Assembly: GCA_947088865.1 (NCBI GenBank)
Contig: CAMUHY010000004.1
Span: forward strand, 62,001 to 126,000
From: an uncultured Eubacterium sp.
GTDB taxonomy: Bacteria > Bacillota > Clostridia > Lachnospirales > Lachnospiraceae
DNA: 64,000 bases
Direction of reading: 5' to 3'
How positions within the stretch are numbered: position 1 is the first letter of the stretch; every line of letters begins with the position of its first letter. The notes under the pieces are model-generated. The model was not told the DNA's origin. It saw only the letters and a program-made list of their open reading frames with translations, and ran no database searches. The translations under genes were made by a program, and so were the position numbers. Below, in pieces: positions 2,102-15,831 of the stretch.

Positions 2102-3292
2102 TTACTGAAATGACACCTTTATACTGCATATTTCAGCATCTGTGCCAACTCTCATAAAAGGTCCATATAATCCTACTCCAGAAGTTACAATATTGTGCAT
2201 ATTTCCTTTTTTAAGATAACCATATGAATTTTCCCATATAAGCTGACATGTAATATTTAGAGGAAACAATTGTCCATCATGTGTATGTCCACATAAATCC
2301 AAATCAACGCCCGCATTGGCAAGCTCTCCAAGCTCACGCGGCTCATGGTCAATAACAATAATCGGTTTAGATTGGTCTAATCCCTCTACCAGCTCATCTG
2401 GTGTCTTTCTAACCTCAATATCTCGTCCCGGTCTTTTTGCATCAGGTCTTCCATATAAATAAAAGCTATTATCAATAAGAACATACTCGTCTCTAAGAAG
2501 TTTGATATTTGCTCTTTCTAAAAATTCATCCATACGAATATCGCTTTGTCTTTTTTCGCGTTTATCAAATCGAAACGTAAATCCACCTATAATTTTTTCT
2601 GCTATATCATGATTCCCATAACAAGCATACACGCCATATTTACTGTTAATACTGCTTAAAATATTAATTAATTCCTCTGGATTATCAAGACTGTCGTAAT
2701 CATTGTCAAAAATATCTCCCGCAATAACCACAAGGTCTGGATTGGTTGCATTTATTTTTTCTACCATCTGCTTTATCTGTCTTTGTCGTATGTTATACCC
2801 CATATGCAAGTCTGCAACCAAAACAATATTCATTGATTTTATATTGCCTGCTTTTTTGTCAACGGAAACGTCATAATTTGTCGTATATATCACTCCTGCA
2901 TGGATTACGCCATATGTACTGCATGATATAATAAACACCAGACATAAAACGCCTGCAAGTATATGTATTTTTCTTGTCCTAAGCTTACTTCTTTTTGTCA
3001 CTATCACAACAAATCTCGATAAATCTGCAACAATAAGCGCTATGGTCGTATAAAGTCCAACACCATACCAGTAATTACCTATACTAACCATAGCTGCTTT
3101 TATATCGGAACCTTTCGGAAGAAAAAATCCAACAATCATTGCGCTTGCAAAAAATAAATATATTATAAGAATGGGCGCTCGAATATACCACTTTTTTGTT
3201 TTTACATGAATATTTTTTAGCCAAATAAATAATCGAAATAAAAAATATACATTTAACAGGACATATACTGGTGATAAAATGATTGCAAGCAT
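2102..3292 (-). CDS. Membrane-anchored metallophosphoesterase (YkuE/YaeI-like)
   Basis: This 396-residue protein has four or five predicted membrane segments in the first 145 residues and then a calcineurin-like phosphoesterase domain. The metal-binding motifs appear in order: VADLHMG, GDIFDND, GNHD, IDHEP and CGHTHDGQ. Such proteins hydrolyse phosphomono- or diesters; YkuE-like members act at the outer face of the membrane, possibly on lipid or UDP-sugar substrates. The start at 3292 follows a strong AGGGAGG site and overlaps the end of the upstream gene by 40 bases, which suggests translational coupling in a three-gene operon with the flippase-like and DUF975/CmpB genes. The domain is certain; the substrate is unknown. 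Confidence 0.85.
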   Translation of the reverse strand: MLAIILSPVYVLLNVYFLFRLFIWLKNIHVKTKKWYIRAPILIIYLFFASAMIVGFFLPKGSDIKAAMVSIGNYWYGVGLYTTIALIVADLSRFVVIVTKRSKLRTRKIHILAGVLCLVFIISCSTYGVIHAGVIYTTNYDVSVDKKAGNIKSMNIVLVADLHMGYNIRQRQIKQMVEKINATNPDLVVIAGDIFDNDYDSLDNPEELINILSSINSKYGVYACYGNHDIAEKIIGGFTFRFDKREKRQSDIRMDEFLERANIKLLRDEYVLIDNSFYLYGRPDAKRPGRDIEVRKTPDELVEGLDQSKPIIVIDHEPRELGELANAGVDLDLCGHTHDGQLFPLNITCQLIWENSYGYLKKGNMHNIVTSGVGLYGPFMRVGTDAEICSIKVSFQ

Positions 3293-5193
3293 GTGATATC
3301 CTCCCTATCTTGATTACAAAATAAATATTCTTCATTTAATGCGTAATCTGTTATTCCCTTACCTTCATTCGGATTATCATTTGAATAAATCTTATCCACC
3401 ATAAATATTATAATCAATGCAACACATAAAGGAACTAAGATTGCCATTGAAATTTTCCTTAATATATTATCCAACATTGGCGCGACAACATATACAAATG
3501 CTATACCGCCTAGTCCAAACACAAGCAGACCTTCCGCGCATATTCTGCCGTTTAAATTTAAAAAATAGCCTGTATAATCCCACCATTTTTTTCCATTATG
3601 AGCAATCTCAAGATACCATGAAGTAAAATATTCCACGATACCACACAATATAATTGCTGTTATAAATTCTAACACTGGATTTTTTCTAAATTTAAATAAT
3701 AACAGTAAAATTAATATGCCCCCAGCACCATATATAGGAAGCCATGGTCCATGAAGCACACCTCTGTTGACAAATCTACCGTCCTCTATCAAATGCAAAA
3801 TCACTTCCCAAATCCAACCAATAAACGAGACAACAAAAAACATAACCACTAATGATACAACCGAATAATGTCTCATATAGCGCAAGTCTCGAATCCACTT
3901 TTTTACCATATTTTCTTTCGATGCATCATATACTTTGCTCATCTTTATAGGATACGTTTTGCCAGACACAACACTATTAACATGTTTTATAGCAATCACT
4001 TGAGACATATACTCTTGATAAATTTCATCTTCTTTTCCATAAAATAATGTAATTCCAAATGTATTATTTAAAAATCCAATGATTCCCTTTTTCTTTTTAT
4101 ATTCAGGCAAAGGCTTATTGACTAACTCGTATTCTTCTTTGTACGTTGCCTTAATTGCTTCTTCATCTGGTATTTCATATAAATATTGGTCATTTAATAA
4201 ATCAATATTTTCAATGCCATTTTCTTTTGCAATATTTCGGATATATACATAATATTCCGCAAAAGTCGCCTCCTTATAAGGATTCAAATAAACAGCTCCA
4301 ACAATTCCATATGATAAAAAATCTAATATTTCCCATAATATAAAAGACCAAGACATAACAAAACATTGCCATTTATGACCGCACATCATCCTTCGTGATA
4401 ATGTTATAGCGGTATTTGGCGATATATCTGGATTTTCTGCTACAATATATGGAACCATAAAATAAGAGTATTTTTTAATAAATGCGCCTACAATTGTAAA
4501 TAGCCACAATATTTCATAAACATCTTTTAACAGCATAGTCATTGCCGCTTTGCACCACTTGCCAGATTTAAAAATATAGGCAAATCTCTGAATAGGCACT
4601 TCCTTATAGATACGTCCCTCCATAAAGATTCGTTTGTATATTATACTAAATATATTAAAAATAAATATCCAGACAGCCATCAAAACAGCAAAACTAAGCA
4701 ATATAAACAATACAATTGCCGCATTGTCTGAACCTGTAATATTTTTAAGCAATAAGACAATTGACACTAAAATTTGCCCGCTGGATATATAATTGACAAT
4801 TGAAGAAAAGACCCCTTGCGACCGCCCTAATATCACATTTTCTTTAATAGCAGCATCCTTATCCACCGTCTGTTGTATTTCCTGCTGTGTTTTATCTTTT
4901 GTCTCATTAATTTTTCCCTGCGCTAATTCACCCCATACAGTTTTAAGCTTAGAATATAGACTAATACCGCCTGATGTTGGCACATCATCAATCACTTCAT
5001 CAACATCTTGATTTGTTTCAGACTGATAATACTGCACCCATAACGATATATCTTCATTTATTGTAAATATATCAATAGCACTTGTATAAGCTATGCCAAG
5101 CACCGCTGACACAATTAACGATACAATATAAATAAGAATATGGTTTTTCACTGCAACTTTCGCTGATTTCTTTAATGTTTTTCTGTTATACAT
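3253..5193 (-). CDS. DUF975-like / CmpB-like putative ABC permease fusion
   Basis: This is a polytopic membrane protein of 646 residues. The N-terminal half begins with a basic 'KKSAKVAVKNH' stretch and a first membrane segment, as in DUF975-family integral membrane proteins. It carries a charged extracellular or linker region (about 45-125) and several further membrane helices. The C-terminal third ('GWIWEVILHLI', 'NRGVLHGPWLPIYG', 'EYFTSWYLE', 'WWDYTGYFLNLNGRICAEGL') matches the family called putative ABC transporter type IV (CmpB). No ATPase is adjacent. The start at 5193 is preceded by GGAG at good distance; an earlier in-frame ATG at 5217 lacks a site. Transport function is only suggested by the family name. 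Confidence 0.75.
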   Translation of the reverse strand: MYNRKTLKKSAKVAVKNHILIYIVSLIVSAVLGIAYTSAIDIFTINEDISLWVQYYQSETNQDVDEVIDDVPTSGGISLYSKLKTVWGELAQGKINETKDKTQQEIQQTVDKDAAIKENVILGRSQGVFSSIVNYISSGQILVSIVLLLKNITGSDNAAIVLFILLSFAVLMAVWIFIFNIFSIIYKRIFMEGRIYKEVPIQRFAYIFKSGKWCKAAMTMLLKDVYEILWLFTIVGAFIKKYSYFMVPYIVAENPDISPNTAITLSRRMMCGHKWQCFVMSWSFILWEILDFLSYGIVGAVYLNPYKEATFAEYYVYIRNIAKENGIENIDLLNDQYLYEIPDEEAIKATYKEEYELVNKPLPEYKKKKGIIGFLNNTFGITLFYGKEDEIYQEYMSQVIAIKHVNSVVSGKTYPIKMSKVYDASKENMVKKWIRDLRYMRHYSVVSLVVMFFVVSFIGWIWEVILHLIEDGRFVNRGVLHGPWLPIYGAGGILILLLLFKFRKNPVLEFITAIILCGIVEYFTSWYLEIAHNGKKWWDYTGYFLNLNGRICAEGLLVFGLGGIAFVYVVAPMLDNILRKISMAILVPLCVALIIIFMVDKIYSNDNPNEGKGITDYALNEEYLFCNQDREDITCLQSFYHQYMSC

Positions 5194-5243
5194 ATTAATT
5201 CTCCATAAGCTGTCCAATTATTTCAGATAAAATAATATAACTA

Positions 5244-6290
5244 TTATTTGTCTAACACGTAATTTTTATTTTTATAATGATTTGAAATTGCTTTTCCTAA
5301 TACTACCAAAATACCTACTAATAATAAAAAGTAAAAGTTTGCAAACCTTGTGACACACATGGATGCTGTAAGATACTTACTTGTAAATACTCCTTCAAAT
5401 ACTCGCTTATACAAAAATTCTGTAATTCCCTGCGCACCTGGAAGAGGAAGCATATCTACGGATATCATAATTGCTATCTGCACCAACATAATATATTGAA
5501 TACTACTGCCTGATAATCCAAAACCTCTATATACAATATAAGTCAGCACAACTAAGAAAAATCGCTGTAAATAACTTACTAAAAACATATAGGTAACTTT
5601 TTTCTTATCCTCTAACAACGATTTTTTCACATCTCTATATCCGTCAAAAAAACCATGAATTGCTTTTGCACTTTTTTCAGAATCCTTTAATATATGTACC
5701 TTTACAAGTCCCCTTAATAGAGCTTGCGCTATTCGTTCTATCAAATCTGGATTTATCATAATGAACAAAAGAAGCACTACCCAAAATACAACAATAATCA
5801 ATCCCAGATAATACCACCCCATATGTCCATAAAAGACTTCATTAATGACATCATTAAAGAAAAGAAGCAATACAACGCCAACTGATGCAAGAACAAATTT
5901 ATTCATTGCTGCAATCACTGTCAATGTAGCGCAACTTTTAGAAAAACTATATCCATCTTTTTTTATATAATATAACTGCATTGGCTGCCCGCCAGAAGCA
6001 GACGGTGTTATCCCACTGTAAAAAAAGCCAATAAACGCATAACCTACGCATTGAAAAAATCCTTTTATCCCATTATGGGAGGCGAACATAAACCATATCA
6101 TAAAACCTTCACAAGAAACATATAAAAATGAAGAAATCAAAGCAGCTATCAACGCTAAAGGGGATAATGACGTCAAAGAATCTAATATTTCATTTAAATC
6201 TTGCCCTTCAAATACCGTAAAAAATGTAAATCCCATTACAAGAACAAATAAAAGAATTTGACTGAGTCGTTTTTTTAACTTATTACTCAT
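5244..6290 (-). CDS. Lysylphosphatidylglycerol synthase TM-like / YbhN-type flippase
   Basis: This 348-residue protein has about eight hydrophobic segments. The motifs 'SGITPSASGGQPMQLYY' and 'LPLPGAQGITEFLY' are typical of the LPG_synthase_TM family, which includes the membrane half of MprF and stand-alone YbhN/AglD-like proteins that are thought to flip lipids or lipid-linked sugars. The catalytic lysyl-transferase domain of MprF is absent, so it is not a complete MprF. It is first in the operon with the CmpB-like and phosphoesterase genes. The start follows GAGAAAGG with a 13-base spacer, part of a leader motif shared with several other genes here. Family confident; substrate unknown. Confidence 0.85.
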   Translation of the reverse strand: MSNKLKKRLSQILLFVLVMGFTFFTVFEGQDLNEILDSLTSLSPLALIAALISSFLYVSCEGFMIWFMFASHNGIKGFFQCVGYAFIGFFYSGITPSASGGQPMQLYYIKKDGYSFSKSCATLTVIAAMNKFVLASVGVVLLLFFNDVINEVFYGHMGWYYLGLIIVVFWVVLLLFIMINPDLIERIAQALLRGLVKVHILKDSEKSAKAIHGFFDGYRDVKKSLLEDKKKVTYMFLVSYLQRFFLVVLTYIVYRGFGLSGSSIQYIMLVQIAIMISVDMLPLPGAQGITEFLYKRVFEGVFTSKYLTASMCVTRFANFYFLLLVGILVVLGKAISNHYKNKNYVLDK

Positions 6291-6425
6291 ATTTATGAAT
6301 GACCTTTCTCTTAATCTGTAAAACTTATAAAATCGTAAACATAAAAATTATATCATAATAAAACTATAAAATAAAGAAGGACTGTTGTAAAATCAATTTT
6401 TCATATAATCTATGAATATTTAGTA

Positions 6426-6500
6426 AAATACCATAGCATCCAAAGGACACTATGGTATTTGACCCTCACGGCAGTGCTTGCTCGCAAAAATAAAACTTCT
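6426..6500 (-). terminator. Terminator-like hairpin with GAGGGTC block, copy 1
   Basis: AAATACCATAG (6426-6436) pairs perfectly with CTATGGTATTT (6450-6460), with a further TCC/GGA pairing in the loop. On the minus strand it is preceded by GCCGTGAGGGTC and followed by TTTTA. The same block and hairpin form occur at 41942-42000. It lies downstream of the hemerythrin gene and could end that operon. Confidence 0.6.
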
Positions 6501-6544
6501 ATATTCCATCTTATATTGTTTGATTTTATAACAGTCCGCATATC

Positions 6545-6575
6545 AAACGGATATTCGCAATCCGTTTTGCTGCTT
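6545..6575 (-). repeat. REP-like hairpin repeat, copy 3
   Basis: AACGGAT (6546-6552) and ATCCGTT (6560-6566) form a perfect stem around ATTCGCA, the same loop as copy 1. Relative to copy 1 a G-C pair is replaced by an A-T pair on both arms, a compensatory change that keeps the stem. Confidence 0.75.
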
Positions 6576-6661
6576 CTTTGATAAAGCTAAATTACTCTAA
6601 ATATATCTACATTTTTGATTTTATTGCTAATTTTTATTGCTAATATATACAGCAGCCATTA

Positions 6662-7483
6662 TTATTCCTCAGCAGGTATTTTTTTATCCATCTTTAAAAT
6701 ATGATTTTTAAGCCACTCTAATAAAAAATTAATCAATTCCTCAAGATATTCTTCTTGATTGTCATCGACGGATTCCAAATCCACTCGATTTAATTTTTCA
6801 ATAAACGCTCTATGGGCTAATCGTTGAACTTCAATATCTTTATATCGAATACGCTCCATATACTCTTCTTCATCCGAAAAATGTTTATCTGTATAATCTT
6901 TTAAATCATTTAACACATTGACAATTCTATCAAATTTATCATGGACATATTCCATATGTATAACATCATATACATTCTGAATAATCTGAAAGAGCTGTTT
7001 ATGTTCTTCATCTATAAAATCAATATTGGTTTTATACTCTTGCGTAAATTGGAAAGATTGTTCGTTAGATGAAGTTGAAGAAGTTTGCACTGTTCCCATC
7101 TTTCCAATCATAATGTCGCTTCCAAGTATATGCCGATACAGCCAGTTAGAAAGGAAAATCAATAAATCCTCCAACATTTTTTTACTTTCTTCTTCATCTA
7201 AATTATCTGTATATATATCATTTACTTTTTTTGTAAATGCTTCATGTTCTCTTATTTGTCTAGGCAATTCAGGGTCATTAATCTTCCTCATATATGCTTC
7301 TTCATGCTCAAAATGAACCTCCGCATATTTTTTTAACTCCTTCACTAACCCTCGAATCATAACAATATGCTTATTTGCTGTATTGAGCAAACCATATGCC
7401 TCATTAATCACCTGAAATAAATGCTCATGTTCCCTGTCTATCTCTTCAATCCCAGTAATACAATCCTCTGTAAATTCATACAT
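6662..7483 (-). CDS. Tandem hemerythrin-domain protein
   Basis: This protein of about 273 residues carries two bacteriohemerythrin domains of about 125 residues each. Each has the di-iron ligand pattern: a first His in 'EIDREHEHLF' and 'FIDEEHKQLF', then the H-x3-E motif in 'HFEHEEAYM' and 'HFSDEEEYM', then an H-x-x-F stretch and a final H-x4-D ('HILGSDIM', 'HILKMDKK'). Hemerythrins bind O2 reversibly at a di-iron site and serve as oxygen sensors, stores or scavengers. It starts only 35 bases after the radical SAM/HAD gene and is probably the last gene of that operon. I chose the ATG at 7483; an in-frame ATG at 7495 lies two bases after the AGGAAGG site. Family secure; role in the operon is inference. 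Confidence 0.88.
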   Translation of the reverse strand: MYEFTEDCITGIEEIDREHEHLFQVINEAYGLLNTANKHIVMIRGLVKELKKYAEVHFEHEEAYMRKINDPELPRQIREHEAFTKKVNDIYTDNLDEEESKKMLEDLLIFLSNWLYRHILGSDIMIGKMGTVQTSSTSSNEQSFQFTQEYKTNIDFIDEEHKQLFQIIQNVYDVIHMEYVHDKFDRIVNVLNDLKDYTDKHFSDEEEYMERIRYKDIEVQRLAHRAFIEKLNRVDLESVDDNQEEYLEELINFLLEWLKNHILKMDKKIPAEE

Positions 7484-7518
7484 ATCAATCACCATGTCCT
7501 TCCTTTACTCTGCAACTT

Positions 7519-8997
7519 TTAGTATCTATGTATTTTAACATAGGCACCACAAACATCTTCCATTGCAATATCTTCTTTATCATTCCCCACAGACAGCACA
7601 TCTTTTGCCGAAATGCCAAGCCATGAACAAATCTCTAAGATACCTGTACCTTTATTTCTATCTTTGGCAACAATCTGCAAACAATGGTTTTCAACAAAAA
7701 AACGACACTCTGATTCTTTAAAAAACGCCCTTATCAAAGCACACTCGTCATCATTCCATGTAAAACGACAATTTTTTATCAATGTTACTTTATAGATTAT
7801 ACCATTTATTTTATAAAATTGGAATCGAGCTTTTACTTTTTTTAAAAATTGTTGTAATTTTAATAAATCATTTACTTTCACTGGATAATAATTTAATTTT
7901 AAACCATTCTCATTATTTAAATATAAATATGCCCCTGAAGCTATAATCCCTCCCTGAAATAAATGAACAGACTCTTTTAAACGTCTTATCACTTCTTCTC
8001 TTGGCATAGATGTTGCAAAAAACAGTGGAAAATCATTTTTTAATGCCATTAAATACTGATAAGTTTCTAAAGATAATCCATTTTTTGAACCTTTATCAAA
8101 AAGAGTGCCGTCTAAATCAAAAAAGATTGCTTTTGGCTTTTTAGGAACCCTAAAAATAGGATAACTACCAAAAAAATTTTTAGAATGAAAATCTGTCCTT
8201 CCACTGTAAGCAAGATAGCAAGAACATCTTTTACTGTGGCATAGTGGATTAAAAATATCTTCTTTTGTGCCTTCATACCAATTAACAGGCTTTATATTAC
8301 TGATATTGCAAGAATGAAGCTGTCCATCCGCCTCAACAAAACAGCGATTTTTGCACATTGATGAGAAAGCTTTTGGATAGTTTAATTCATTGATAAAAAA
8401 AGGGTCTATTTTTATAAATGTATTTAATTCATCAACCGTATACTTTCTTTTTAAACCATCCATTTTATTAATCCATAAATAGATGCTTTTGGGAAGTTTA
8501 TCTCTTAATTGTTTTATTATCTCTATATTTTCAGGTACGCCAACTGCTCCAGCACTTAAATGAACTTTCTTTTCAACAAGTCTGTTGCATTGTCCGACAA
8601 ATGAATCAATATCCGTCATTTCTGGATGAAAAGTTGCCCAAATACAAAGCTTCTCTACTTTTCCTCCTAAATCCATATAAATCTTCAAAAATTTTTCAAC
8701 GGCAAAACTAGCATTTGTCTGAACACCTACTTTATCTATCTTATCAAGACGCGATAAACAAGCTAACCCTTCCCAATACCAATGATGAATGAGGGCTTCA
8801 CCATATGGCGTGACAAAAACAGCGCCTATCGAAAACGCATCCACTCTTTTTTTTACGCTCTCGCAAAATGCTGCCCAACATTCTCTATCCCTCTCAAGCT
8901 CCCTATCGGATATTTTATTTTTTGAAAACGGACAATACGAACAGTGATAATTACAACTTTTCAAACTACCTCTGTAAACAATTGTGTTTTTATCCAT
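7519..8997 (-). CDS. STM4011-like radical SAM protein fused to HAD phosphatase
   Basis: This protein of 492 residues has two parts. The N-terminal part is a radical SAM enzyme with Cys15-x3-Cys19-x2-Cys22 for the SAM-binding 4Fe-4S cluster, followed by a Cys-rich stretch (Cys215, 219, 230, 253, 258, 260) that may bind an auxiliary cluster, as in SPASM-type enzymes. From about residue 288 it is a Cof-type HAD hydrolase: DLDGT (294-298) as motif I, an 'FATSMPREEV' stretch near motif II, and 'KGTGILEICSWLG' with 'VGNDKEDIAMEDV' at the end. The first part matches my memory of the STM4011 family. Its start overlaps the end of the STM4012-like gene by 8 bases (ATGGATAA), a sign of coupling; an earlier start at 9057 is unlikely. 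Product and substrate are unknown. Confidence 0.82.
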   Translation of the reverse strand: MDKNTIVYRGSLKSCNYHCSYCPFSKNKISDRELERDRECWAAFCESVKKRVDAFSIGAVFVTPYGEALIHHWYWEGLACLSRLDKIDKVGVQTNASFAVEKFLKIYMDLGGKVEKLCIWATFHPEMTDIDSFVGQCNRLVEKKVHLSAGAVGVPENIEIIKQLRDKLPKSIYLWINKMDGLKRKYTVDELNTFIKIDPFFINELNYPKAFSSMCKNRCFVEADGQLHSCNISNIKPVNWYEGTKEDIFNPLCHSKRCSCYLAYSGRTDFHSKNFFGSYPIFRVPKKPKAIFFDLDGTLFDKGSKNGLSLETYQYLMALKNDFPLFFATSMPREEVIRRLKESVHLFQGGIIASGAYLYLNNENGLKLNYYPVKVNDLLKLQQFLKKVKARFQFYKINGIIYKVTLIKNCRFTWNDDECALIRAFFKESECRFFVENHCLQIVAKDRNKGTGILEICSWLGISAKDVLSVGNDKEDIAMEDVCGAYVKIHRY

Positions 8998-10297
8998 TGA
9001 CACGCTCCCACTCAAGCATCTTTTCTGCGATTTCCTCTGAGATAAGCTTTGGTCCAATATAATCAGAAAGACTAAGCCCTATTTCAGTAAGACAAATAAA
9101 GTCATTGTTTTCATCAATCCACCCTGCTTTTATCCATTCATTGATAATTGGAAAATCTATTAACAAATCCGATGCAAATGCCTTTTTATAAGCGCTCTTT
9201 GAAATTCCAGGAATTATCATTAAATGTTTAATGACATACCTTCTTTTTAATTCATCATCCGAGAGTAAAATCCCATGATGTACCATCATATGGTCTTTTG
9301 TCTGGATATAACTGTCAAGCTCTTTTAATGCTGCACATCTTGTTATTTTGTAAGGCGTACATGTATGAAGCCTGCCTAAATAGGTTCGTCCTCCACAGCC
9401 TAGCGACAATGTACTTTTAAACCCACATTCTGTAAATGGTCGCTCCCATTGGTCTTGATTGTTTTGTGTTTTCTTTAAAAAACAACGCATAGAGCATTGT
9501 ATATATCCATTTTCTTTTAAATAAGCCGAACCACATTGATATAAACGATATGTATTTTCTGAATCGAAATCATTTTTTTGTGATGATTTTAGAAGTTTTA
9601 CGCCATGTTTAATATACAGCGGATATAGATATATTTCATCTGGAGAAAATGCAATCGCCTGCTTTAAAGAATCAATAAAACTTTCTTCTGTCTGATTAGG
9701 TATGCCATAAATAAAATCAAAATTAACACACTCAAAATTTGCATCGCTCAAAATCGTTGCCGCCTGCAAAGCTTGCTCTTTACAATGATTTCTTTGAAGC
9801 TGCTTCAACTCCGTATCATGGAAACTTTGTATGCCTAAACTAACTCGTGTAACACCCATCTTTTGCAGCAAAGCAATTTTTTCTTGGGTAGTCTGATTTG
9901 GAGCTGTCTCTATAATGATTTTACATTCTTTACTCAATGGCATATATTCTTTTACTGCTTCAAAAATCCTTAATAACTGCTTATCTGTCAATAATAGCGG
10001 CGTTCCACCGCCAATAATAAAATCTTGAAAGACCGTACTTTGTGGTAAAAATTGTTTGTACTGTTTTATTTGACTTATCACTGTTTCAATATAGTTATCT
10101 ATCCTTGTTTCATTTAATCCTGTCACGGAAAATAAATCACAATAGCCACATTTACTTTCACAAAAAGGAAGATGAAGATATAAACTATGCCCTTCACCTT
10201 CCAAATGATAAAAATAATTGTTTAAATTGATATTTTCTAATAAACCATAAGCTGTTTTATGAGGATAACTATACATATATTGTATATATCGATTCAT
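8990..10297 (-). CDS. STM4012-like radical SAM protein (HemW/HemN-like)
   Basis: This 435-residue radical SAM protein has Cys46-x3-Cys50-x2-Cys53 (CESKCGYC) and a GGGTP stretch (96-100). It continues with 'RVSLGIQSFHDTELKQL' and 'NFDFIYGIPNQTEESF', which are typical of the coproporphyrinogen-oxidase-like HemN/HemW branch. The context of four other STM401x-type genes argues that it is the STM4012 family and not the heme chaperone HemW. The start at 10297 is supported by GGAG five bases upstream; a second ATG at 10300 and an upstream frame to 10333 are weaker. The gene lies 78 bases downstream of the sulfatase-like gene. The likely role is modification of an unknown substrate, together with the fused radical SAM/HAD enzyme. 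Confidence 0.85.
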   Translation of the reverse strand: MNRYIQYMYSYPHKTAYGLLENINLNNYFYHLEGEGHSLYLHLPFCESKCGYCDLFSVTGLNETRIDNYIETVISQIKQYKQFLPQSTVFQDFIIGGGTPLLLTDKQLLRIFEAVKEYMPLSKECKIIIETAPNQTTQEKIALLQKMGVTRVSLGIQSFHDTELKQLQRNHCKEQALQAATILSDANFECVNFDFIYGIPNQTEESFIDSLKQAIAFSPDEIYLYPLYIKHGVKLLKSSQKNDFDSENTYRLYQCGSAYLKENGYIQCSMRCFLKKTQNNQDQWERPFTECGFKSTLSLGCGGRTYLGRLHTCTPYKITRCAALKELDSYIQTKDHMMVHHGILLSDDELKRRYVIKHLMIIPGISKSAYKKAFASDLLIDFPIINEWIKAGWIDENNDFICLTEIGLSLSDYIGPKLISEEIAEKMLEWERVNG

Positions 10298-10344
10298 CAT
10301 GTCTCCTGCTCTATAAAAATAAGTTATACACAACTTTCAAAATA

Positions 10345-10358
10345 AATAGTATACTATT
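10345..10358. promoter_or_regulatory. 14-bp perfect palindrome between STM4013-like and STM4012-like genes
   Basis: AATAGTATACTATT reads the same on both strands. It lies in the only sizeable gap (78 bases) inside the five-gene set, so it may be an operator or a weak processing hairpin. No promoter hexamers are convincing around it. Confidence 0.35.
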
Positions 10359-10375
10359 ATTTTATATAATAAATT

Positions 10376-11236
10376 TTACTCTATAAAAAAATGCTTATAT
10401 GGAACTGTATTAACAACTGGATGATTAACTGCATGGAATATATAGCCATCTTCACCATAGCATGTGCCATGGTCTGAAAAACATACAACAAATGTTTTTC
10501 CTCGCTTCTCCTTCCAACAATCAAACAATCGTCCCAATTGAGTATCAACATACCTCAATGCAGCTTTATGACTCTCAATACTGTCATTTTTATTATTATC
10601 CAAATAAAAATAATTTGGATAGTGAATTGCACATACATTGAGATATAAAAAGATTTTTCTGTCATCCGTATTTTGTTCGAGTTTCTTTATAATAAAATCC
10701 ACTTGATTATTGACACTTTCCTTTACAGAACATGAAAACGAAGGATTCCAATAACTCTTTTCAAAAAAACTTGGAAAAACATTACCTATATCGGAACGTT
10801 TATCAAAAAATGTTACTCCGCCGACACACCATGTATCGTAGCCGTCATTATGAAGTCCTTGAACAAGATTGCTTGAAGAAAAACCATACGCACCCTTTGG
10901 TGCATTTTTTCCCATACCGCTGTTTTTCGGAAAAAATAACATTTCCTGCTGTGCAATATTTTTTGCTTCCTCTTTTCCAGGCAGAAAGCCTGCAAAAATA
11001 GCATGATGTGAAGGATATGTAAAATTACCTGGCGCTTGACGTTTTTCCCACAAACCATAACGGTTTAAAACAGGAGTACCGCCATTCTTTTCTTCCTCAA
11101 CAGCAGCATCATACCTTAATGTATCAAGACATACAAACAAAATATCGTTGCTGCCCACCACCTGTGTCATATCAACGGACGTTTCATTTTTTGTCATACT
11201 AGCACGAAATGCTGCAAATGGTACTTCATTCATCAT
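10376..11236 (-). CDS. STM4013/SEN3800-like sulfatase-family hydrolase
   Basis: This 286-residue protein belongs to the alkaline phosphatase/sulfatase superfamily. The N-terminal metal-binding stretch is 'FVCLDTLRYD' (Asp38), and 'NFTYPSHHAIFAG' holds a Thr (73) at the place of the catalytic nucleophile. The C-terminal metal site is SDHGTCYGEDG (254-264) followed by a His near 268. Such enzymes cleave sulfate or phosphate esters or transfer phospho groups. It has no signal peptide, so it should act in the cytoplasm, unlike most sulfatases. Its ATG overlaps the stop of the ATP-grasp gene (ATGA), showing tight coupling. Family STM4013 by memory of motifs and context; substrate unknown. Confidence 0.83.
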   Translation of the reverse strand: MMNEVPFAAFRASMTKNETSVDMTQVVGSNDILFVCLDTLRYDAAVEEEKNGGTPVLNRYGLWEKRQAPGNFTYPSHHAIFAGFLPGKEEAKNIAQQEMLFFPKNSGMGKNAPKGAYGFSSSNLVQGLHNDGYDTWCVGGVTFFDKRSDIGNVFPSFFEKSYWNPSFSCSVKESVNNQVDFIIKKLEQNTDDRKIFLYLNVCAIHYPNYFYLDNNKNDSIESHKAALRYVDTQLGRLFDCWKEKRGKTFVVCFSDHGTCYGEDGYIFHAVNHPVVNTVPYKHFFIE

Positions 11237-12333
11237 ATTTTCTGTCCTTTCCTTATATATCCGTCTACCATTATGTTTTTTATAATTTCAATTTGTTTTC
11301 TATAAATTGTATTGTTGCTATATACATCTTTATGCATCAAATCACCTTGTGAGTTCATCTCAATAATATAAGGCTTCTCACTGTCTTCTTCTAATAAAAC
11401 ATCAAGACCTATACTGTTTAATCTCGGATAACATGCCGCCGCCTTGATACAGACATCACAAAGTTTATCAACCGTAGATTTTTTTAAATTTAATTCATTG
11501 AAAGGGATTGACAAATTATTTAAATGTAAATTAGTAATAGGTCCTTTTGATAATCGCGGCAAAATATAATCAATCCTTCCATCTTGGACAATCACACGCA
11601 AATCAAAAGAATAATTGTTGTCAAAATAATCATTATCCTTACTTTGACAATGAGACTTTCTATGCCATTTTTCTACAATACAATCCAACTTTAAAAGCGT
11701 GTTTAAAAATTCAACTGCCGTATCTTGTTCTAAGCGATGCATTCTTTTTGTATTAATAAGGTTATCTTCCAACAACTGCGCACATGTATATAACACAATC
11801 TTATTTTTTATTGGTTCAAAACGAAGTGCAGACACACCAGCAGCCCCAGAACCTGTAACAGGTTTTACAAAGACTTGTCTCAGCCGATTTTCCCTCATAA
11901 ATGACAGTAGTTCATCACTTTTTGAAAACGTATGAAAAATAGGTTTTGTGACAGGAATACCATTTTGTATTAGCTTTTGTTTGCATTTTCTTTTATCTAA
12001 CAATTCTAAAATATCCATAGGATGATTAAAATATGCGCCAAAAGGCAGTTCTGTCAAAGTAAACAATGCTTTCTTATATTGATTCGTAAGTTTATCTAAA
12101 TCATTTAAGACAGAGCTGTCCCATTTTGGTGCATCAATTTTGATAATACAATGTTTTAAATCATCCCTTTTTCCCAAAAGCAAAAAATTATTCCAATCAC
12201 AAAATTCATAATCAATCCCTGCCTCATAGACCGCTTTTTCAAAGTAAATCTTTCTTTTGTCACCTTCTACACCAAGCAGTAAAATCTTTTTTATTCTGTC
12301 AGCATTGCATTCATCCAGATTTCTCCGTGCCAT
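11233..12333 (-). CDS. STM4014-like ATP-grasp family protein
   Basis: This 366-residue protein has the layout of an ATP-grasp enzyme: an N-terminal Rossmann-like part ('KKILLLGVEGDK'), a central 'DKRKCKQKLIQNGIPVTKP' stretch, the ATP-binding 'VFVKPVTGSGAAGVSA' loop, then 'SFDLRVIVQDG' and a C-terminal metal-binding 'IGLDVLLEEDSEKPYIIEMN'. ATP-grasp enzymes activate a carboxylate with ATP and join it to an amine or thiol, for example adding amino acids to a peptide (RimK-like). It begins inside the end of the LRR gene (43-base overlap) with a perfect AGGAGG ten bases upstream, and its stop overlaps the next ATG. This fits the STM4014 family. The acceptor is unknown; the LRR protein encoded just upstream is a candidate. 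Confidence 0.82.
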   Translation of the reverse strand: MARRNLDECNADRIKKILLLGVEGDKRKIYFEKAVYEAGIDYEFCDWNNFLLLGKRDDLKHCIIKIDAPKWDSSVLNDLDKLTNQYKKALFTLTELPFGAYFNHPMDILELLDKRKCKQKLIQNGIPVTKPIFHTFSKSDELLSFMRENRLRQVFVKPVTGSGAAGVSALRFEPIKNKIVLYTCAQLLEDNLINTKRMHRLEQDTAVEFLNTLLKLDCIVEKWHRKSHCQSKDNDYFDNNYSFDLRVIVQDGRIDYILPRLSKGPITNLHLNNLSIPFNELNLKKSTVDKLCDVCIKAAACYPRLNSIGLDVLLEEDSEKPYIIEMNSQGDLMHKDVYSNNTIYRKQIEIIKNIMVDGYIRKGQKI

Positions 12334-13157
12334 TCTTCGACATCCTCCTGCTCTGACAGGTCTATAACAATTGGCATTTTTTTCAATTTTCCCATCATCT
12401 CATCAGATAAATAATGATAATGTAAATCTACTTTTTTAATATTTGGATATTGTGGAATCTTCTCTAATAAAAGAGCGCCACTCTTATCCGTCAAAGTGCC
12501 ATTAGACAAATCCAATGTATTAATCTGGTTCATATATTTACTTTCAAGAACAACTTGTGCCAATTCATCTTGAATTTCACTGTCTGTAATTCCAAGATAG
12601 GTTAAATTTGGAAAATCCGATTTTGCTAATAAATTTTCAATCGTTTTTGCATCCCCATCAAATCCATAATTCTCAACACCAATATACAATAAAAGCTTCT
12701 TTAAATTAGGCAATTTTGCTTTTTGAATCTCCTCGATAACATTCTTGCCAAGACCACCGCAAATAATGGTCAACGACCTTAAATTTTCATGTTCGATATC
12801 TCCTAATGTCAAATTAGTGCTGCCCTTTATCGTCAATTCTGTCAACTGCGGCATAGCTGCCCAAAACTTGCTGTAATCTCCCTGCTCAATCCAAGACACT
12901 TCACACTCTTCATAAGTCATATCACCGACAAACAACTTTGTAATATGGCTAAATTTATCTGCATTTTCAACAATGCCATTAATAATTTCCTGACAGTCCT
13001 CACCTTCATAACCCCAACAGCCGATAATCAATTCTTCTAAATCAGGAAATTCACTGTCTGTAAGCATATCTTCTATCATCGTATCTGGACCTTTGCCACC
13101 ATCGTCACAATCATCCCAATCATAAACATACTTTTTACTTTTACCCATACTCACCAT
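12291..13157 (-). CDS. STM4015-like leucine-rich-repeat protein
   Basis: This protein of up to 288 residues is made mainly of degenerate leucine-rich repeats: 'ENLRSLTIICGG', 'LPNLKKLLLYIG', 'FPNLTYLGITDS', 'INTLDLSNG' and 'YPNIKKVDLHYH'. The N-terminus is Asp-rich ('DWDDCDDGG') and the C-terminus ends in an acidic, Trp-containing tail. It has no signal peptide. As first gene of the STM4011-STM4015-type operon it is either the scaffold that recruits a partner or the substrate modified by the two radical SAM enzymes and the ATP-grasp ligase; this is inference. The start is peculiar. An AAGGAG site lies 23 bases before ATG 13157, with a perfect hairpin between them. A second in-frame ATG at 13148 has only GGTGAG directly next to it. 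Confidence 0.8.
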   Translation of the reverse strand: MVSMGKSKKYVYDWDDCDDGGKGPDTMIEDMLTDSEFPDLEELIIGCWGYEGEDCQEIINGIVENADKFSHITKLFVGDMTYEECEVSWIEQGDYSKFWAAMPQLTELTIKGSTNLTLGDIEHENLRSLTIICGGLGKNVIEEIQKAKLPNLKKLLLYIGVENYGFDGDAKTIENLLAKSDFPNLTYLGITDSEIQDELAQVVLESKYMNQINTLDLSNGTLTDKSGALLLEKIPQYPNIKKVDLHYHYLSDEMMGKLKKMPIVIDLSEQEDVEEWHGEIWMNAMLTE

Positions 13158-13160
13158 TTA

Positions 13161-13177
13161 GAACTGTTACACAGTTC
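13161..13177 (-). promoter_or_regulatory. Hairpin between Shine-Dalgarno and start codon of the STM4015-like gene
   Basis: GAACTGT and ACAGTTC form a perfect 7-bp stem with a 3-base loop. On the minus strand it sits between AAGGAG (13181-13186) and the ATG at 13157. Without the hairpin the spacing is 23 bases, too long; with the 17 bases folded away only 6 remain, an optimal distance. Confidence 0.6.
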
Positions 13178-13200
13178 TTTCTCCTTTACCATAATAAAAA

Positions 13201-13229
13201 ATTATAGCACATATGTTTTGTTTTAACAA
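13201..13229 (-). promoter_or_regulatory. Promoter of the STM4015-STM4011-like operon
   Basis: On the minus strand TTGTTA (13224-13229) and TATAAT (13201-13206) are separated by 17 bases, and TG precedes the -10 as an extended -10 element. It lies just upstream of the LRR gene and could drive all six minus-strand genes down to the hemerythrin. Confidence 0.65.
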
Positions 13230-13346
13230 TACTTGGAAAATCATATTTTTATTATTTTTAATTATATTCAATGGAAAATTTGGGAAACCTATGTTATATT
13301 ATACAAAACTAGAAATCGTATTATAATTGTAGAAATGAGGATAACC

Positions 13347-14195
13347 ATGATTATTGATTTTCATACCCATACATTTCCTTCGTTTTTGGCAGACAGAGCT
13401 ATTTATACACTTGGTCATAATGGACGAATTAAAAATTATATAAAAGGAACCAATGACAGCCTTATATCCTCTATGAATGAATCGCATGTTGATTACTCTA
13501 TTCTATTACCCGTTGCTACCAAACCGACTCAAACAGAAAACATTAATCAAACTGCCATTGCTATCAATGAATTTTCTGAAGAAACAGGACTGATTTCTTT
13601 TGGCGGAATACACCCTGACAATGAAAATCCTAAAAAAATCATTAAAGACCTTGCCCATAACGGTGTAAAAGGAATTAAGCTGCATCCTATTTTTCAAAGA
13701 ACATATATTGATGATATAAAATATCTTCATATTATAGAATACGCTTGTGAAAATGATATGATTATTTTGATTCATGCAGGATATGATATCACTATACCAT
13801 TGTATAACTATGCCAATATATCACATATCCTAACAATGTTAGATACCCTTCAGCCAAAAAATATGATATTGGCTCATATGGGTGGTTGGGGATGCTCTTC
13901 ACAAGTAGAAGGCACTCTTCTTGGACGGGATGTCTATTTTGACACAGCGCTTTCACTCCTTCGATTAAAGCCTGCTCCAAATACAAAACGCCGCCCAGAA
14001 GAAGCACCTCCATTGTCAAGAGAACGTTTTTTACGATTTGTTAAAAAACATGGGGCTTCCAAAATACTATTTGGTACAGATTGCCCTTGGGATTCTCAAA
14101 AAAATGTTATTCAATTTATAAAAGACAGTGGTCTTTCTGATAAAGATACGTCTGCAATACTTGGTGATAATGCTGCTCGGTTACTAAAATTATAA
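13347..14195 (+). CDS. Amidohydrolase family protein (Amidohydro_2)
   Basis: This 282-residue TIM-barrel metal hydrolase has the H-x-H motif at the N-terminus (His6 and His8 in 'MIIDFHTHTF'), 'GIKLHPIFQ', 'LIHAGYD', 'LAHMGGWG' and the late Asp in 'LFGTDCPWDSQ'. This set of ligands is typical of the amidohydrolase 2 family, which contains decarboxylases and hydrolases. The start at 13347 is preceded by GAGGAT; an upstream in-frame ATG at 13233 has no site. It runs opposite to its neighbours, and its stop is one base from the stop of the convergent acyl-CoA synthetase gene. A distant relative lies at 40987-41733. Substrate unknown. Confidence 0.85.
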   Translation: MIIDFHTHTFPSFLADRAIYTLGHNGRIKNYIKGTNDSLISSMNESHVDYSILLPVATKPTQTENINQTAIAINEFSEETGLISFGGIHPDNENPKKIIKDLAHNGVKGIKLHPIFQRTYIDDIKYLHIIEYACENDMIILIHAGYDITIPLYNYANISHILTMLDTLQPKNMILAHMGGWGCSSQVEGTLLGRDVYFDTALSLLRLKPAPNTKRRPEEAPPLSRERFLRFVKKHGASKILFGTDCPWDSQKNVIQFIKDSGLSDKDTSAILGDNAARLLKL

Positions 14196-14196
14196 T

Positions 14197-15831
14197 TTAT
14201 GCCTTATTTTCTTTTTCTACCAATCGAACAGCGCCATAACGTTCACGCAGTTTTGGCTTCTCAATCTTGCCCGTAGCATTTCTTGGAATCTCAGCAAATA
14301 TAATCTCTTTTGGTCGTTTATATCGAGGAAGTTGGCTGCAAAATTGCTCAATTTCTTCCTGTGTACATGAAACATTGTCCTTAAGCTCTATAACAGCAGC
14401 CGCCTTTTCGCCAAGACGCCTGTCAGGAAGCCCTATAACTGCCACATCTTTTATTTTATCATAACGTCTTAAGAAATCTTCTATCTGCACTGGATATAAA
14501 TTTTCACCGCCGCTGACAATGACATCTTTTTTTCGGTCTACCAAGAAATAAAAACCATCTTCGTCCTGCATAGCCATGTCGCCAGTGTAGAGCCAGCCAT
14601 CTTTAAGCGACTCCTTTGTAGCTTCCTCATTATGGTAATAACAAGTCATAACACCAGGTCCCTTAACACACAGTTCTCCAACTTCGCCCTGCTTGACTTT
14701 ACTGCCGTCTTCGTCAACAATCTTGCAAGACCAGCGATAACCTGGAACACCTATGGCTCCTACCTTATGTATATTTTCCATACCTAGATGTACACAACCT
14801 GGTCCTGTTGATTCCGATAAACCATAATTTGTGTCATAACTATGATTTGGGAAATACTCTTTCCACCTTTTAATAAGCGATGGCGGCACGGGCTGTGCGC
14901 CAATGTGCATAAGACGCCACTGGTTTAGTTCATAATCTGAAATGTTTATTTTCCCGCTCTCTAGGGCATCCAAAATATCTTGCGCCCATGGCACCAACAA
15001 CCATACAATCGTACATTTTTCAGAGGATATAGCAGATAAAATAGTCTCTGGTTTTGTCCCCTTTAAAAGTACTGCTTTACTTCCTGCAACAAGACTCCCC
15101 ATCCAATGAAACTTAGCGCCGGTATGATACAGCGGCGGTATACATAAAAACACATCATCTCTTCCTGTTTTGTGATGTATCTGTTCCATCTGTGCTGCCT
15201 GCGTAAGACTTTGATGTTTATGTAAAATAGCCTTTGGAAAGCCTGTTGTACCTGATGAAAAATAAATAGCGCCATAGTCGTCTTCTGTGATAGCAATATC
15301 TGGCGATTTGCTGGAACAATCGGCAACTAACGCATGATAACTTTCAGCAAAACTTGGACAGCTATCACCAAAATAGATTAAAAGCCTTCCCTTAGAAAGT
15401 TTATCTGCATAGGTTTCCATTCTTCCTATAAATGCAGAACCAAATACAATGACATCCACCTCTGCAAGCTCTGCACAATATAGTATCTCATCGGCATCAT
15501 AGCGGAAATTAAATGGCACTGCTATGGCGCCTGTCTTTAATACGCCAAAATATATAGGCAGCCATTCAAGGCAGTTGTGCATAAGAATAGCAACTTTGTC
15601 TCCTTTTTTAATTCCTCGCCCCAATAACATATTGGCAAAACGGTTTGCTTTTTCATTAAATACACTCCAGCTAATTTGCCTTCGATATGGCTTAAATCGT
15701 TCTGGCTCAATTAAATCAAACTCTTTCCATGTCATTCGACGATTGTCTCTCTCGTCTGGATTTAATTCTACTAAAGCTATCTCATCTGGGTAAAGCTTCG
15801 CATTTCTCTCAAGATATTCTATAACAGGCAT
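14197..15831 (-). CDS. Acyl-CoA synthetase / AMP-binding enzyme
   Basis: This 544-residue protein of the ANL superfamily activates a carboxylic acid with ATP to an acyl-adenylate and then forms the CoA thioester. The AMP-binding P-loop is 'YFSSGTTGFPKAI'. Further motifs are 'YDTNYGLSESTG', 'GWLYTGDMAMQDEDGF' with the hinge region 'DRKKDVIVSGGENLYP', and the C-terminal catalytic Lys in 'PRNATGKIEKPKL'. The length matches fatty- or aryl-acid CoA ligases. It is the last of four closely spaced minus-strand genes (PAS kinase, HD-GYP regulator, GGDEF protein), 33 bases after the GGDEF gene, so it may share their transcript. A 12-bp palindrome lies just before its ribosome binding site AGGAAGGGG. 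Acid substrate unknown. Confidence 0.88.
   Translation of the reverse strand: MPVIEYLERNAKLYPDEIALVELNPDERDNRRMTWKEFDLIEPERFKPYRRQISWSVFNEKANRFANMLLGRGIKKGDKVAILMHNCLEWLPIYFGVLKTGAIAVPFNFRYDADEILYCAELAEVDVIVFGSAFIGRMETYADKLSKGRLLIYFGDSCPSFAESYHALVADCSSKSPDIAITEDDYGAIYFSSGTTGFPKAILHKHQSLTQAAQMEQIHHKTGRDDVFLCIPPLYHTGAKFHWMGSLVAGSKAVLLKGTKPETILSAISSEKCTIVWLLVPWAQDILDALESGKINISDYELNQWRLMHIGAQPVPPSLIKRWKEYFPNHSYDTNYGLSESTGPGCVHLGMENIHKVGAIGVPGYRWSCKIVDEDGSKVKQGEVGELCVKGPGVMTCYYHNEEATKESLKDGWLYTGDMAMQDEDGFYFLVDRKKDVIVSGGENLYPVQIEDFLRRYDKIKDVAVIGLPDRRLGEKAAAVIELKDNVSCTQEEIEQFCSQLPRYKRPKEIIFAEIPRNATGKIEKPKLRERYGAVRLVEKENKA

What the first reader, a model, noticed from the sequence alone, without database searches (positions are those of the whole stretch)
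6662..13230. A complete STM4011-STM4015-type operon with two radical SAM enzymes in a clostridium
Five genes in the order LRR protein, ATP-grasp, sulfatase-like hydrolase, HemW-like radical SAM, second radical SAM overlap or nearly abut one another and share one promoter (13201-13229). I recognise the set as the uncharacterised STM4011-STM4015 group named after Salmonella. The enzyme mix, with the sulfatase-like enzyme lacking a signal peptide, suggests a cytoplasmic modification pathway in which the LRR protein may be scaffold or substrate. That role is inference.
Basis: partly seen in the sequence, partly recalled or inferred. Interest (0 to 1): 0.85.

Follow-up and report, generated by a model that had tools for sequence, protein, structure and literature searches.

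The report
Operon that modifies a repeat protein's tail
Five neighbouring genes found in scattered bacteria from several phyla look like an enzyme set that chemically modifies the very end of a leucine-rich-repeat protein, which gives a testable role to a group of genes whose function has been unknown.

Summary
The five-gene set is real: all five proteins pass the NCBIfam STM4011-STM4015 cut-offs. The operon is 13157-7519, minus strand. The gene at 6662-7495 is a double hemerythrin, not part of it.
New: the LRR protein (STM4015) looks like the substrate. Its last residue is Glu in 77 of 79 non-redundant proteins and in 72 of 78 further ORFs, usually R-Y-x-x-[VLI]-[TGSA]-E; the enzymes' last residues vary. 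Each of 16 genomes has one STM4014 and one STM4013 above cut-off, but 1-5 STM4015 matches over 80 bits; one genome has 11. Seven tail-less paralogs lack the S88-W89 pair and Y164 but keep four LRR leucines. The STM4014 model's best PDB match is ArgX with LysW, a ligase that loads a protein's C-terminal Glu.
Most likely STM4014 activates that Glu and joins an amine, and two radical SAM and two phosphatase-like enzymes finish the group. The chemistry is inferred.

The parts
13201..13229 (-). promoter-like site (TTGTTA-17-TATAAT, TG before the second hexamer)
   Evidence: consensus match only, 44 found vs 37.1 (sd 6.8) in shuffles
12291..13157 (-). STM4015: leucine-rich-repeat protein, 288 aa, proposed substrate
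   Evidence: NF038076 332 bits / cut-off 275; AlphaFold2 model pTM 0.92; PDB 2ra8 TMq 0.86
12294..12314 (-). codons of the last seven residues MNAMLTE, the C-terminal tail
   Evidence: last residue Glu in 77 of 79 non-redundant homologs
12891..12896 (-). codons of S88-W89, a pair missing from the tail-less paralogs
   Evidence: SW pair in 134 of 148 tail-bearing, 0 of 7 tail-less
12666..12668 (-). codon of Y164, missing from the tail-less paralogs
   Evidence: 141 of 148 vs 0 of 7
11233..12333 (-). STM4014: ATP-grasp ligase, 366 aa
   Evidence: NF038074 276/175; model pTM 0.88; Foldseek best PDB chain ArgX-LysW 3vpb, E 3.9e-14, TMq 0.57
10376..11236 (-). STM4013: alkaline-phosphatase-superfamily (sulfatase-like) enzyme with Thr at the nucleophile position
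   Evidence: NF038075 384/250; PF00884; invariant D38, T73, H77, D255, H256, H268, H272 in 22 sequences
8990..10300 (-). STM4012: HemN/HemW-type radical SAM enzyme
   Evidence: NF006067 478/380; PDB HemN 1olt 4e-58, NocN 9p2u 2e-35
8143..8997 (-). STM4011 radical SAM part with CxxxCxxC and five further conserved Cys
   Evidence: NF038073 294/200; invariant C15, C19, C22, C215, C230, C253, C258, C260 in 21 sequences
7519..8136 (-). C-terminal Cof-type HAD phosphatase domain fused to STM4011
   Evidence: PF08282; separate overlapping gene in Salmonella
6662..7495 (-). double bacteriohemerythrin; neighbour, NOT part of the system
   Evidence: DNA matches in seven congeners while STM4015 is in 1 of 22 genomes of the genus; none found in the other loci searched

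Best explanation
The operon encodes a post-translational modification system that acts on the C-terminus of its own LRR protein. STM4014, an ATP-grasp ligase, phosphorylates a carboxylate of the C-terminal Glu of STM4015 and joins an amine-bearing group to it. The radical SAM enzymes STM4012 (HemN/NocN type) and STM4011 (auxiliary Fe-S cluster, SkfB-like) then remodel the tail or the attached group. STM4013 and, where present, the HAD domain handle a phosphorylated donor or intermediate. The LRR body, through residues that include S88, W89, G134 and Y164, is read by the enzymes or holds the tail. One enzyme set serves several LRR copies of a cell, including copies encoded elsewhere. Shown here: families, gene order, the C-terminal Glu, gene numbers, dispersed copies, joint absence of tail and patch residues, and the LysX/ArgX-like predicted fold of STM4014. 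Inferred: the ligation, its amine, the order of steps, the roles of the other enzymes and the final group.
For: C-terminal Glu: 112 of 114 unique and 77 of 79 non-redundant proteins; all seven further named copies (Salmonella, Deinococcus, Methylobacterium, Streptomyces), giving 84 of 86; 72 of 78 unique myxobacterial ORFs not used to build the profile. Entropy of the last residue 0.18 bit for STM4015 against 2.6-3.84 bits for the four enzymes. Solved homolog 2ra8 matches to ...YPMITE, followed by eight residues. Gene numbers: one STM4014 and one STM4013 above cut-off in each of 16 genomes; STM4015 matches over 80 bits 1-5 per genome, two or more in 8 of 16; 9 STM4015 and 6 STM4014, in the same 6 of 296 Actinomycetota genomes, all over cut-off; 11 STM4015 matches in one myxobacterium, all 11 of these with the tail. 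In G232 STM4015, STM4014 and STM4013 lie on three contigs of a draft genome. Joint absence: SW pair 0 of 7 tail-less vs 134 of 148, Y164 0 of 7 vs 141 of 148, Leu 126/152/188/215 kept in 7 of 7. STM4014 model: best of 350,542 PDB chains are ArgX-LysW, then PsnB, DcsG, LysX/ArgX, RimK. [quoted passage not shown]
Against: No modification has been seen; all evidence is sequence and predicted structure. The fold match of STM4014 is moderate (TMq 0.57) and D-Ala-D-Ala ligases match nearly as well (ranks 11, 14, 15); sequence matches to LysX/RimK are weak (E 0.003-0.007) and the best sequence match is a PPIP5K-type kinase (9e-5). The gene-number argument uses the curated cut-off for the enzymes and a looser one for STM4015: at the curated cut-off only G617, G620 and G628 of the 16 have more than one STM4015 and 6 of 16 have none, and G631 has a second, sub-cut-off STM4013-like match (109 bits). 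Enzyme numbers were not measured in the genome with 11 copies. The window's tail (MNAMLTE) and Salmonella's (YMNAMYTE) lack the common R-Y; only hydrophobic-small-Glu is shared. Tail-less paralogs exist (7 of 155 aligned), and 14 of 148 tail-bearing ones lack the SW pair. Most loci searched have no HAD neighbour by my queries.
Confidence: 0.6

Rival explanations
1. Carrier model: the C-terminal Glu of STM4015 only carries a small molecule, as in LysW/AmCP or pearlin pathways. The enzymes build the product on the tail and it is then released as a free metabolite.
For: STM4014 fold closest to ArgX-LysW; [quoted passage not shown] One locus (L029) has a zinc-carboxypeptidase gene (M14) beside the operon.
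Against: In the five annotated records with the operon no peptidase is annotated within the stretch fetched; the flanks of most other loci were not annotated, so this is a small sample. A large LRR body and several divergent copies per genome (33-72% identical in pairs) are unexpected for a simple carrier.
Confidence: 0.25
2. Scaffold model: the tail and the conserved LRR face are a docking site that gathers STM4011-4014 around another substrate; STM4015 is not covalently changed.
For: LRR proteins are usually binding modules (recalled); tail and patch are missing together, as expected for one binding surface; the tail is predicted ordered.
Against: A scaffold would not obviously need Glu as the very last residue in 77 of 79, or 11 copies in a genome; an ATP-grasp of the LysX/RimK fold needs a carboxylate partner.
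Confidence: 0.15
3. Sulfatase-maturation model: the two radical SAM enzymes activate the sulfatase-like STM4013, as anSME does.
For: A radical SAM enzyme beside a sulfatase-fold enzyme is typical of anSME pairs (recalled).
Against: The nucleophile position of STM4013 is an invariant Thr in the 22 sequences and the 51, not Cys or Ser; the ATP-grasp and the LRR tail would be unexplained.
Confidence: 0.02

Closest known systems
LysW-LysX/ArgX amino-group carrier protein system
   Same: RimK-type ATP-grasp ligase working on a protein whose last residue is Glu, preceded by a small and a hydrophobic residue (LysW ends EDWGE, PMC10433800 passages; STM4015 ends [VLI][TGSA]E); the STM4014 model's top PDB matches include ArgX and LysX.
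   Different: STM4015 is an LRR protein, not a small zinc protein; two radical SAM and phosphatase-type enzymes stand where the Lys/Arg pathway has its own enzymes; often several LRR copies per genome.
RimK polyglutamylation of ribosomal protein RpsF
   Same: ATP-grasp ligase acting at a protein C-terminus (PMC10092738, passages); RimK chains are among the top Foldseek matches.
   Different: RimK adds plain glutamates; here a multi-enzyme set with two radical SAM enzymes accompanies the ligase.
RiPP pathways with radical SAM or ATP-grasp enzymes (SkfB, NocN, graspetide ligases PsnB and MdnB)
   Same: The only PDB sequence match of STM4011 (SkfB, E 0.001), the second match of STM4012 after HemN (NocN) and a top fold match of STM4014 (PsnB) act in RiPP pathways.
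   Different: The substrate would be a folded 280-480 aa LRR (in some cases WGR-LRR) protein, not a short precursor peptide.
STM4011-STM4015 families (NCBIfam NF038073-NF038076, NF006067)
   Same: All five window proteins pass the cut-offs.
   Different: Here STM4011 is fused to HAD (also in L016, L026, L027); in Salmonella HAD is a separate gene overlapping STM4011 by 16 bp.

Membership tests
STM4011-STM4015 gene set | each of the five proteins above its NCBIfam cut-off | tested here: met
   five of five
STM4011-STM4015 gene set | conserved co-occurrence in other genomes | tested here: met
   all five within 9 kb in 75 of 80 loci; 13 of 13 STM4015 genomes hold STM4014; same 6 of 296 genomes
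RimK/LysX-type ATP-grasp ligases | predicted fold closest to LysX/ArgX/RimK | tested here: met
   Foldseek ranks 1, 2, 5-9, 12; D-Ala-D-Ala ligases, PsnB and DcsG close by
RimK/LysX-type ATP-grasp ligases | curated RimK-type family score reached | tested here: not met
   TIGR00768 17.3 bits vs cut-off 143.4; MptN 21.2 vs 350; CofF 17.5 vs 300; so a separate family that may work like them
Amino-group carrier protein (LysW type) | C-terminal Glu on the carrier | tested here: met
   77 of 79; window ends LTE
Amino-group carrier protein (LysW type) | small Zn-binding carrier with EDWGE end | tested here: not met
   288-aa LRR protein ending MNAMLTE
Amino-group carrier protein (LysW type) | isopeptide-bound substrate on the Glu | not testable with these tools
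   needs mass spectrometry
RiPP precursor | short peptide with removable leader and core | tested here: not met
   288-aa protein modelled as a folded LRR; only the tail resembles a core
RiPP precursor | covalent modification of the core | not testable with these tools
   needs mass spectrometry
fGly sulfatase (STM4013) | Cys or Ser in the nucleophile motif | tested here: not met
   invariant Thr73

The most novel reading that the evidence does not exclude
A cell-wide tail-modification system: one enzyme set installs the same unknown chemical group on the C-termini of a whole family of LRR (in myxobacteria often WGR-LRR) proteins, up to 11 in one genome and encoded on separate contigs. The variable LRR body would choose the partner and the built tail would do the chemistry, making these LRR proteins a new class of enzymatically finished recognition proteins.
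Probability: 0.35. Interest if true: 0.9.

Novelty: new variant of a known kind. Interest (0 to 1): 0.74.

Why it matters
The STM4011-STM4015 set occurs here in named records of Paenibacillus, Streptomyces and other actinomycetes, myxobacteria, a Chloroflexaceae, a cyanobacterium, Deinococcus, Methylobacterium and Salmonella, and a Bacteroides LRR homolog is in the PDB. Its function is not known from anything I found: four of the five NCBIfam models are typed hypoth_equivalog or subfamily, and only two papers of the searched library name any of the loci. Naming the likely substrate, the residue and the first enzyme turns an open question into one mass-spectrometry experiment.

Tried and rejected
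Hemerythrin as a sixth component: rejected. DNA matches to it occur in seven congeners (G405, G596, G602, G609, G611, G612, G615, not checked as proteins), although STM4015 is in only 1 of 22 genomes of the genus (13 of the 22 at least 90% complete), and none was found in the other loci searched.

Sulfatase maturation: rejected (Thr nucleophile). Anti-phage defence: PADLOC gave one match, PDC-M51A to STM4012 at 32.8 bits, and nothing for the other five proteins. Rfam: nothing at the gathering threshold in 5000-15000.

HAD as a universal component: not supported. My first HAD profile was contaminated by full-length fusions, so the HAD rows are discarded. A HAD-only query then found, besides the window, only L026 and L027; L016 was found by Pfam, Salmonella by annotation, and a Deinococcus HAD gene lies about 1.4 kb from STM4011.

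Tail in non-LRR proteins: 1 of 11,738 other ORFs, probably chance.

Counts and dropped rows: one search leaves out profile hits under 90 bits and ORFs under 200 aa; those under 60 bits; those under 120 bits, so the sixth exception (second ORF of L218, 73 bits) is not among the seven. The residue numbers printed are five too low; one search has the right ones. One divergent STM4015 copy (L108 13226-14662, ends in Asp) was left out of alignment A3 but is counted. The seven named copies added were not filtered for redundancy. STM4015 numbers count matches over 80 bits (G623 5, G630 4, G628 5; weaker LRR matches ignored). The second copy of G621 lacks the tail. G1079's only match lacks the tail too; its enzymes were not searched. 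STM4012 and STM4011 were not searched for in G232 outside a 19-kb stretch that had neither. STM4012 and STM4013 also have conserved positions near, though not at, their ends.

Papers: ten searches of the PMC library. I saw titles and abstract starts, and passages of PMC4431377, PMC8939145, PMC3844500, PMC10433800, PMC10092738 and PMC9303977; one search listed 12 of 33 hits and 6 of 9. Nothing seen describes this function; subscription papers are not covered.


Full report
OBSERVATION. The window holds, on the minus strand, the five genes STM4015-4014-4013-4012-4011 between 13157 and 7519, and each passes the curated NCBIfam cut-off. The STM4012 start is the ATG at 10300 or 10297. STM4011 is fused to a C-terminal Cof-type HAD domain (PF08282). 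The gene at 6662-7495 is a double bacteriohemerythrin. It is not part of the set: DNA matches to it occur in seven congeners, STM4015 is in 1 of 22 genomes of the genus, and no hemerythrin was found in the other loci searched.

DISTRIBUTION. STM4015 over cut-off: 8 of 398 genomes of the phylum sample, 6 of 200 of the family sample, 1 of 22 of the genus (the window's own genome is counted each time), 6 of 296 Actinomycetota. In Myxococcota 66 of 195 genomes have a match at E up to 1e-20, none over the curated cut-off. This patchiness suggests horizontal spread (inference). 75 of these 80 hold all five genes within 9 kb. The 13 same-phylum genomes with STM4015 over cut-off all have STM4014. In the Actinomycetota sample STM4014 is present in exactly the same 6 genomes as STM4015.

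THE LRR PROTEIN LOOKS LIKE THE SUBSTRATE. (a) Its extreme C-terminus is conserved: Glu is the last residue in 112 of 114 unique and 77 of 79 non-redundant proteins, and in 84 of 86 when seven named copies are added. The usual tail is R-Y-x-x-[VLI]-[TGSA]-E behind an acidic linker of variable length. The window ends WMNAMLTE and Salmonella YMNAMYTE. Last-residue entropy is 0.18 bit against 2.6 to 3.84 bits for STM4011-4014 of the scanned genome-contig loci. (b) Of 78 unique myxobacterial ORFs not used for the profile, 72 end in Glu, among them the 11 matched copies of one genome, on 11 contigs; a twelfth, partial ORF there does not. (c) Gene numbers: each of 16 genomes has exactly one STM4014 and one STM4013 above cut-off, while STM4015 matches over 80 bits number 1 to 5, with two or more in 8 of the 16. 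At the curated cut-off this holds for 3 of 16 (G617, G620, G628), and 6 of 16 have none. In Actinomycetota, with all matches over cut-off, 3 of 6 genomes have two STM4015 and all 6 have one STM4014. Paralogs within a genome are 33-72% identical in the body. (d) Copies away from the enzymes: in G232 STM4015, STM4014 and STM4013 lie on three contigs. Tail-bearing extra copies of G628, G619 and G623 lie on other contigs than STM4014 and STM4013. These are draft genomes. (e) Joint absence: the 7 tail-less sequences among 155 aligned lack the S88-W89 pair (0 of 7 vs 134 of 148; singly S88 3 of 7, W89 1 of 7) and Y164 (0 of 7 vs 141 of 148), with G134 in 1 of 7 vs 135 of 148. They keep leucines 126, 152, 188 and 215 (7 of 7). 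Non-redundant: SW pair 0 of 6 vs 105 of 118. The tail-less copies are few, divergent and partly related, so the P values there are not independent.

ENZYMES. STM4014: the AlphaFold2 model (pTM 0.88) matches best, of 350,542 PDB chains, ArgX with LysW (3vpb, TMq 0.57), then the graspetide ligase PsnB, DcsG, LysX/ArgX with LysW-gamma-AAA (5k2m), RimK and D-Ala-D-Ala ligases. By sequence the PDB hits are a PPIP5K-type kinase (9e-5) and LysX/RimK (0.003-0.007). It is therefore LysX/RimK-like in fold but a separate family. STM4012: HemN (4e-58) and the radical SAM methyltransferase NocN (2e-35). STM4011: the three-Cys radical SAM motif plus five more conserved Cys, the latter region matching SkfB (E 0.001). 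STM4013: alkaline phosphatase superfamily by weak matches to sulfatases and NPP-type enzymes, with an invariant Thr at the nucleophile position. HAD: fused in the window, L016, L026 and L027; a separate gene overlapping STM4011 by 16 bp in Salmonella. The fusion ties the HAD activity to the pathway (Rosetta-stone inference), though most loci searched have no HAD neighbour by my queries.

MECHANISM. LysX joins the amino group of aminoadipate to the gamma-carboxyl of the C-terminal Glu of LysW, whose end is EDWGE (PMC10433800, passages). STM4015 ends in the same order: hydrophobic, small, Glu. I therefore propose that STM4014 activates the C-terminal Glu and joins an amine, after which the radical SAM and phosphatase-type enzymes finish the group. 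Whether the group stays on the protein or is released, as in AmCP or pearlin pathways (PMC9303977, passages), is open. The large, multiplied and in myxobacteria WGR-bearing LRR bodies make me favour that it stays.

AGAINST. No chemistry was observed. The tail is modelled with high confidence (block pLDDT 94 and 90) and may pack against the LRR; I could not read the coordinates. Tail-less paralogs exist, and 14 of 148 tail-bearing ones lack the SW pair. R-Y is not universal. D-Ala-D-Ala ligases are close in fold. Enzyme numbers were not measured in the genome with 11 copies, and G631 has a second STM4013-like match below cut-off.

KNOWN OR NEW. The gene set has names but, in what I searched, no function. 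Two library papers name any of the loci (PMC3844500 read as passages, where STM4013.S is a row in a table of sigma-54 sites; PMC2784778 seen in the listing only). A crystal structure of a homolog exists (2ra8, Bacteroides fragilis, uncharacterised), and no library paper mentions its code or accession. The tail, the gene numbers and the joint absence did not turn up in ten searches of the open library.

Noticed in passing
L099, L105, L106, L174, L175, L177, L178: A DUF6745 gene (PF20530) with a small (about 98-132 aa) 'GHSH' protein lies near the STM operon in a Chloroflexaceae, actinomycetes, Deinococcus and Methylobacterium; the seven DUF6745 C-termini are also alike (Y-x-P-x-x-[EQ]-[TA]) and could be a second tail substrate. 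No library paper holds the word DUF6745.
   Followed up: partly
L176:7259-9422 and L179:5834-9253: STM4013-like genes without STM4015 nearby sit beside NUDIX-type genes, with a lasso-peptide B2 protein (L176) or an ORF with a radical SAM-like Cys motif seen by eye (L179): a separate use of the STM4013 fold.
   Followed up: partly
L017:8544-9650, L096, L108, L109: N-terminal WGR domain on STM4015 proteins of myxobacteria and on the dispersed copy of G232.
   Followed up: partly
L173 (NZ_LN868945.1 15994-29785): A Salmonella Senftenberg record called 'plasmid 3' carries a chromosomal-looking block ompL-STM4015..4011-HAD-typA-glnA.
   Followed up: no
OR845521.1, OR850900.1, AFYI01000005.1: Three records of the phage collection hold an STM4013-type gene; two are tiny (2.2 and 5.9 kb) and may be host DNA.
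   Followed up: no
window 6662-7495: Protein of two tandem bacteriohemerythrin domains just downstream of the operon; DNA matches exist in seven congeners.
   Followed up: yes
window 3253-5217: DUF975 and ABC_trans_CmpB domains in one 654-aa protein, next to an LPG-synthase-type membrane gene at 5244-6290.
   Followed up: no
L029:2166-3995: A zinc-carboxypeptidase (M14) gene with an fn3 match beside the operon in one relative of the same family.
   Followed up: no
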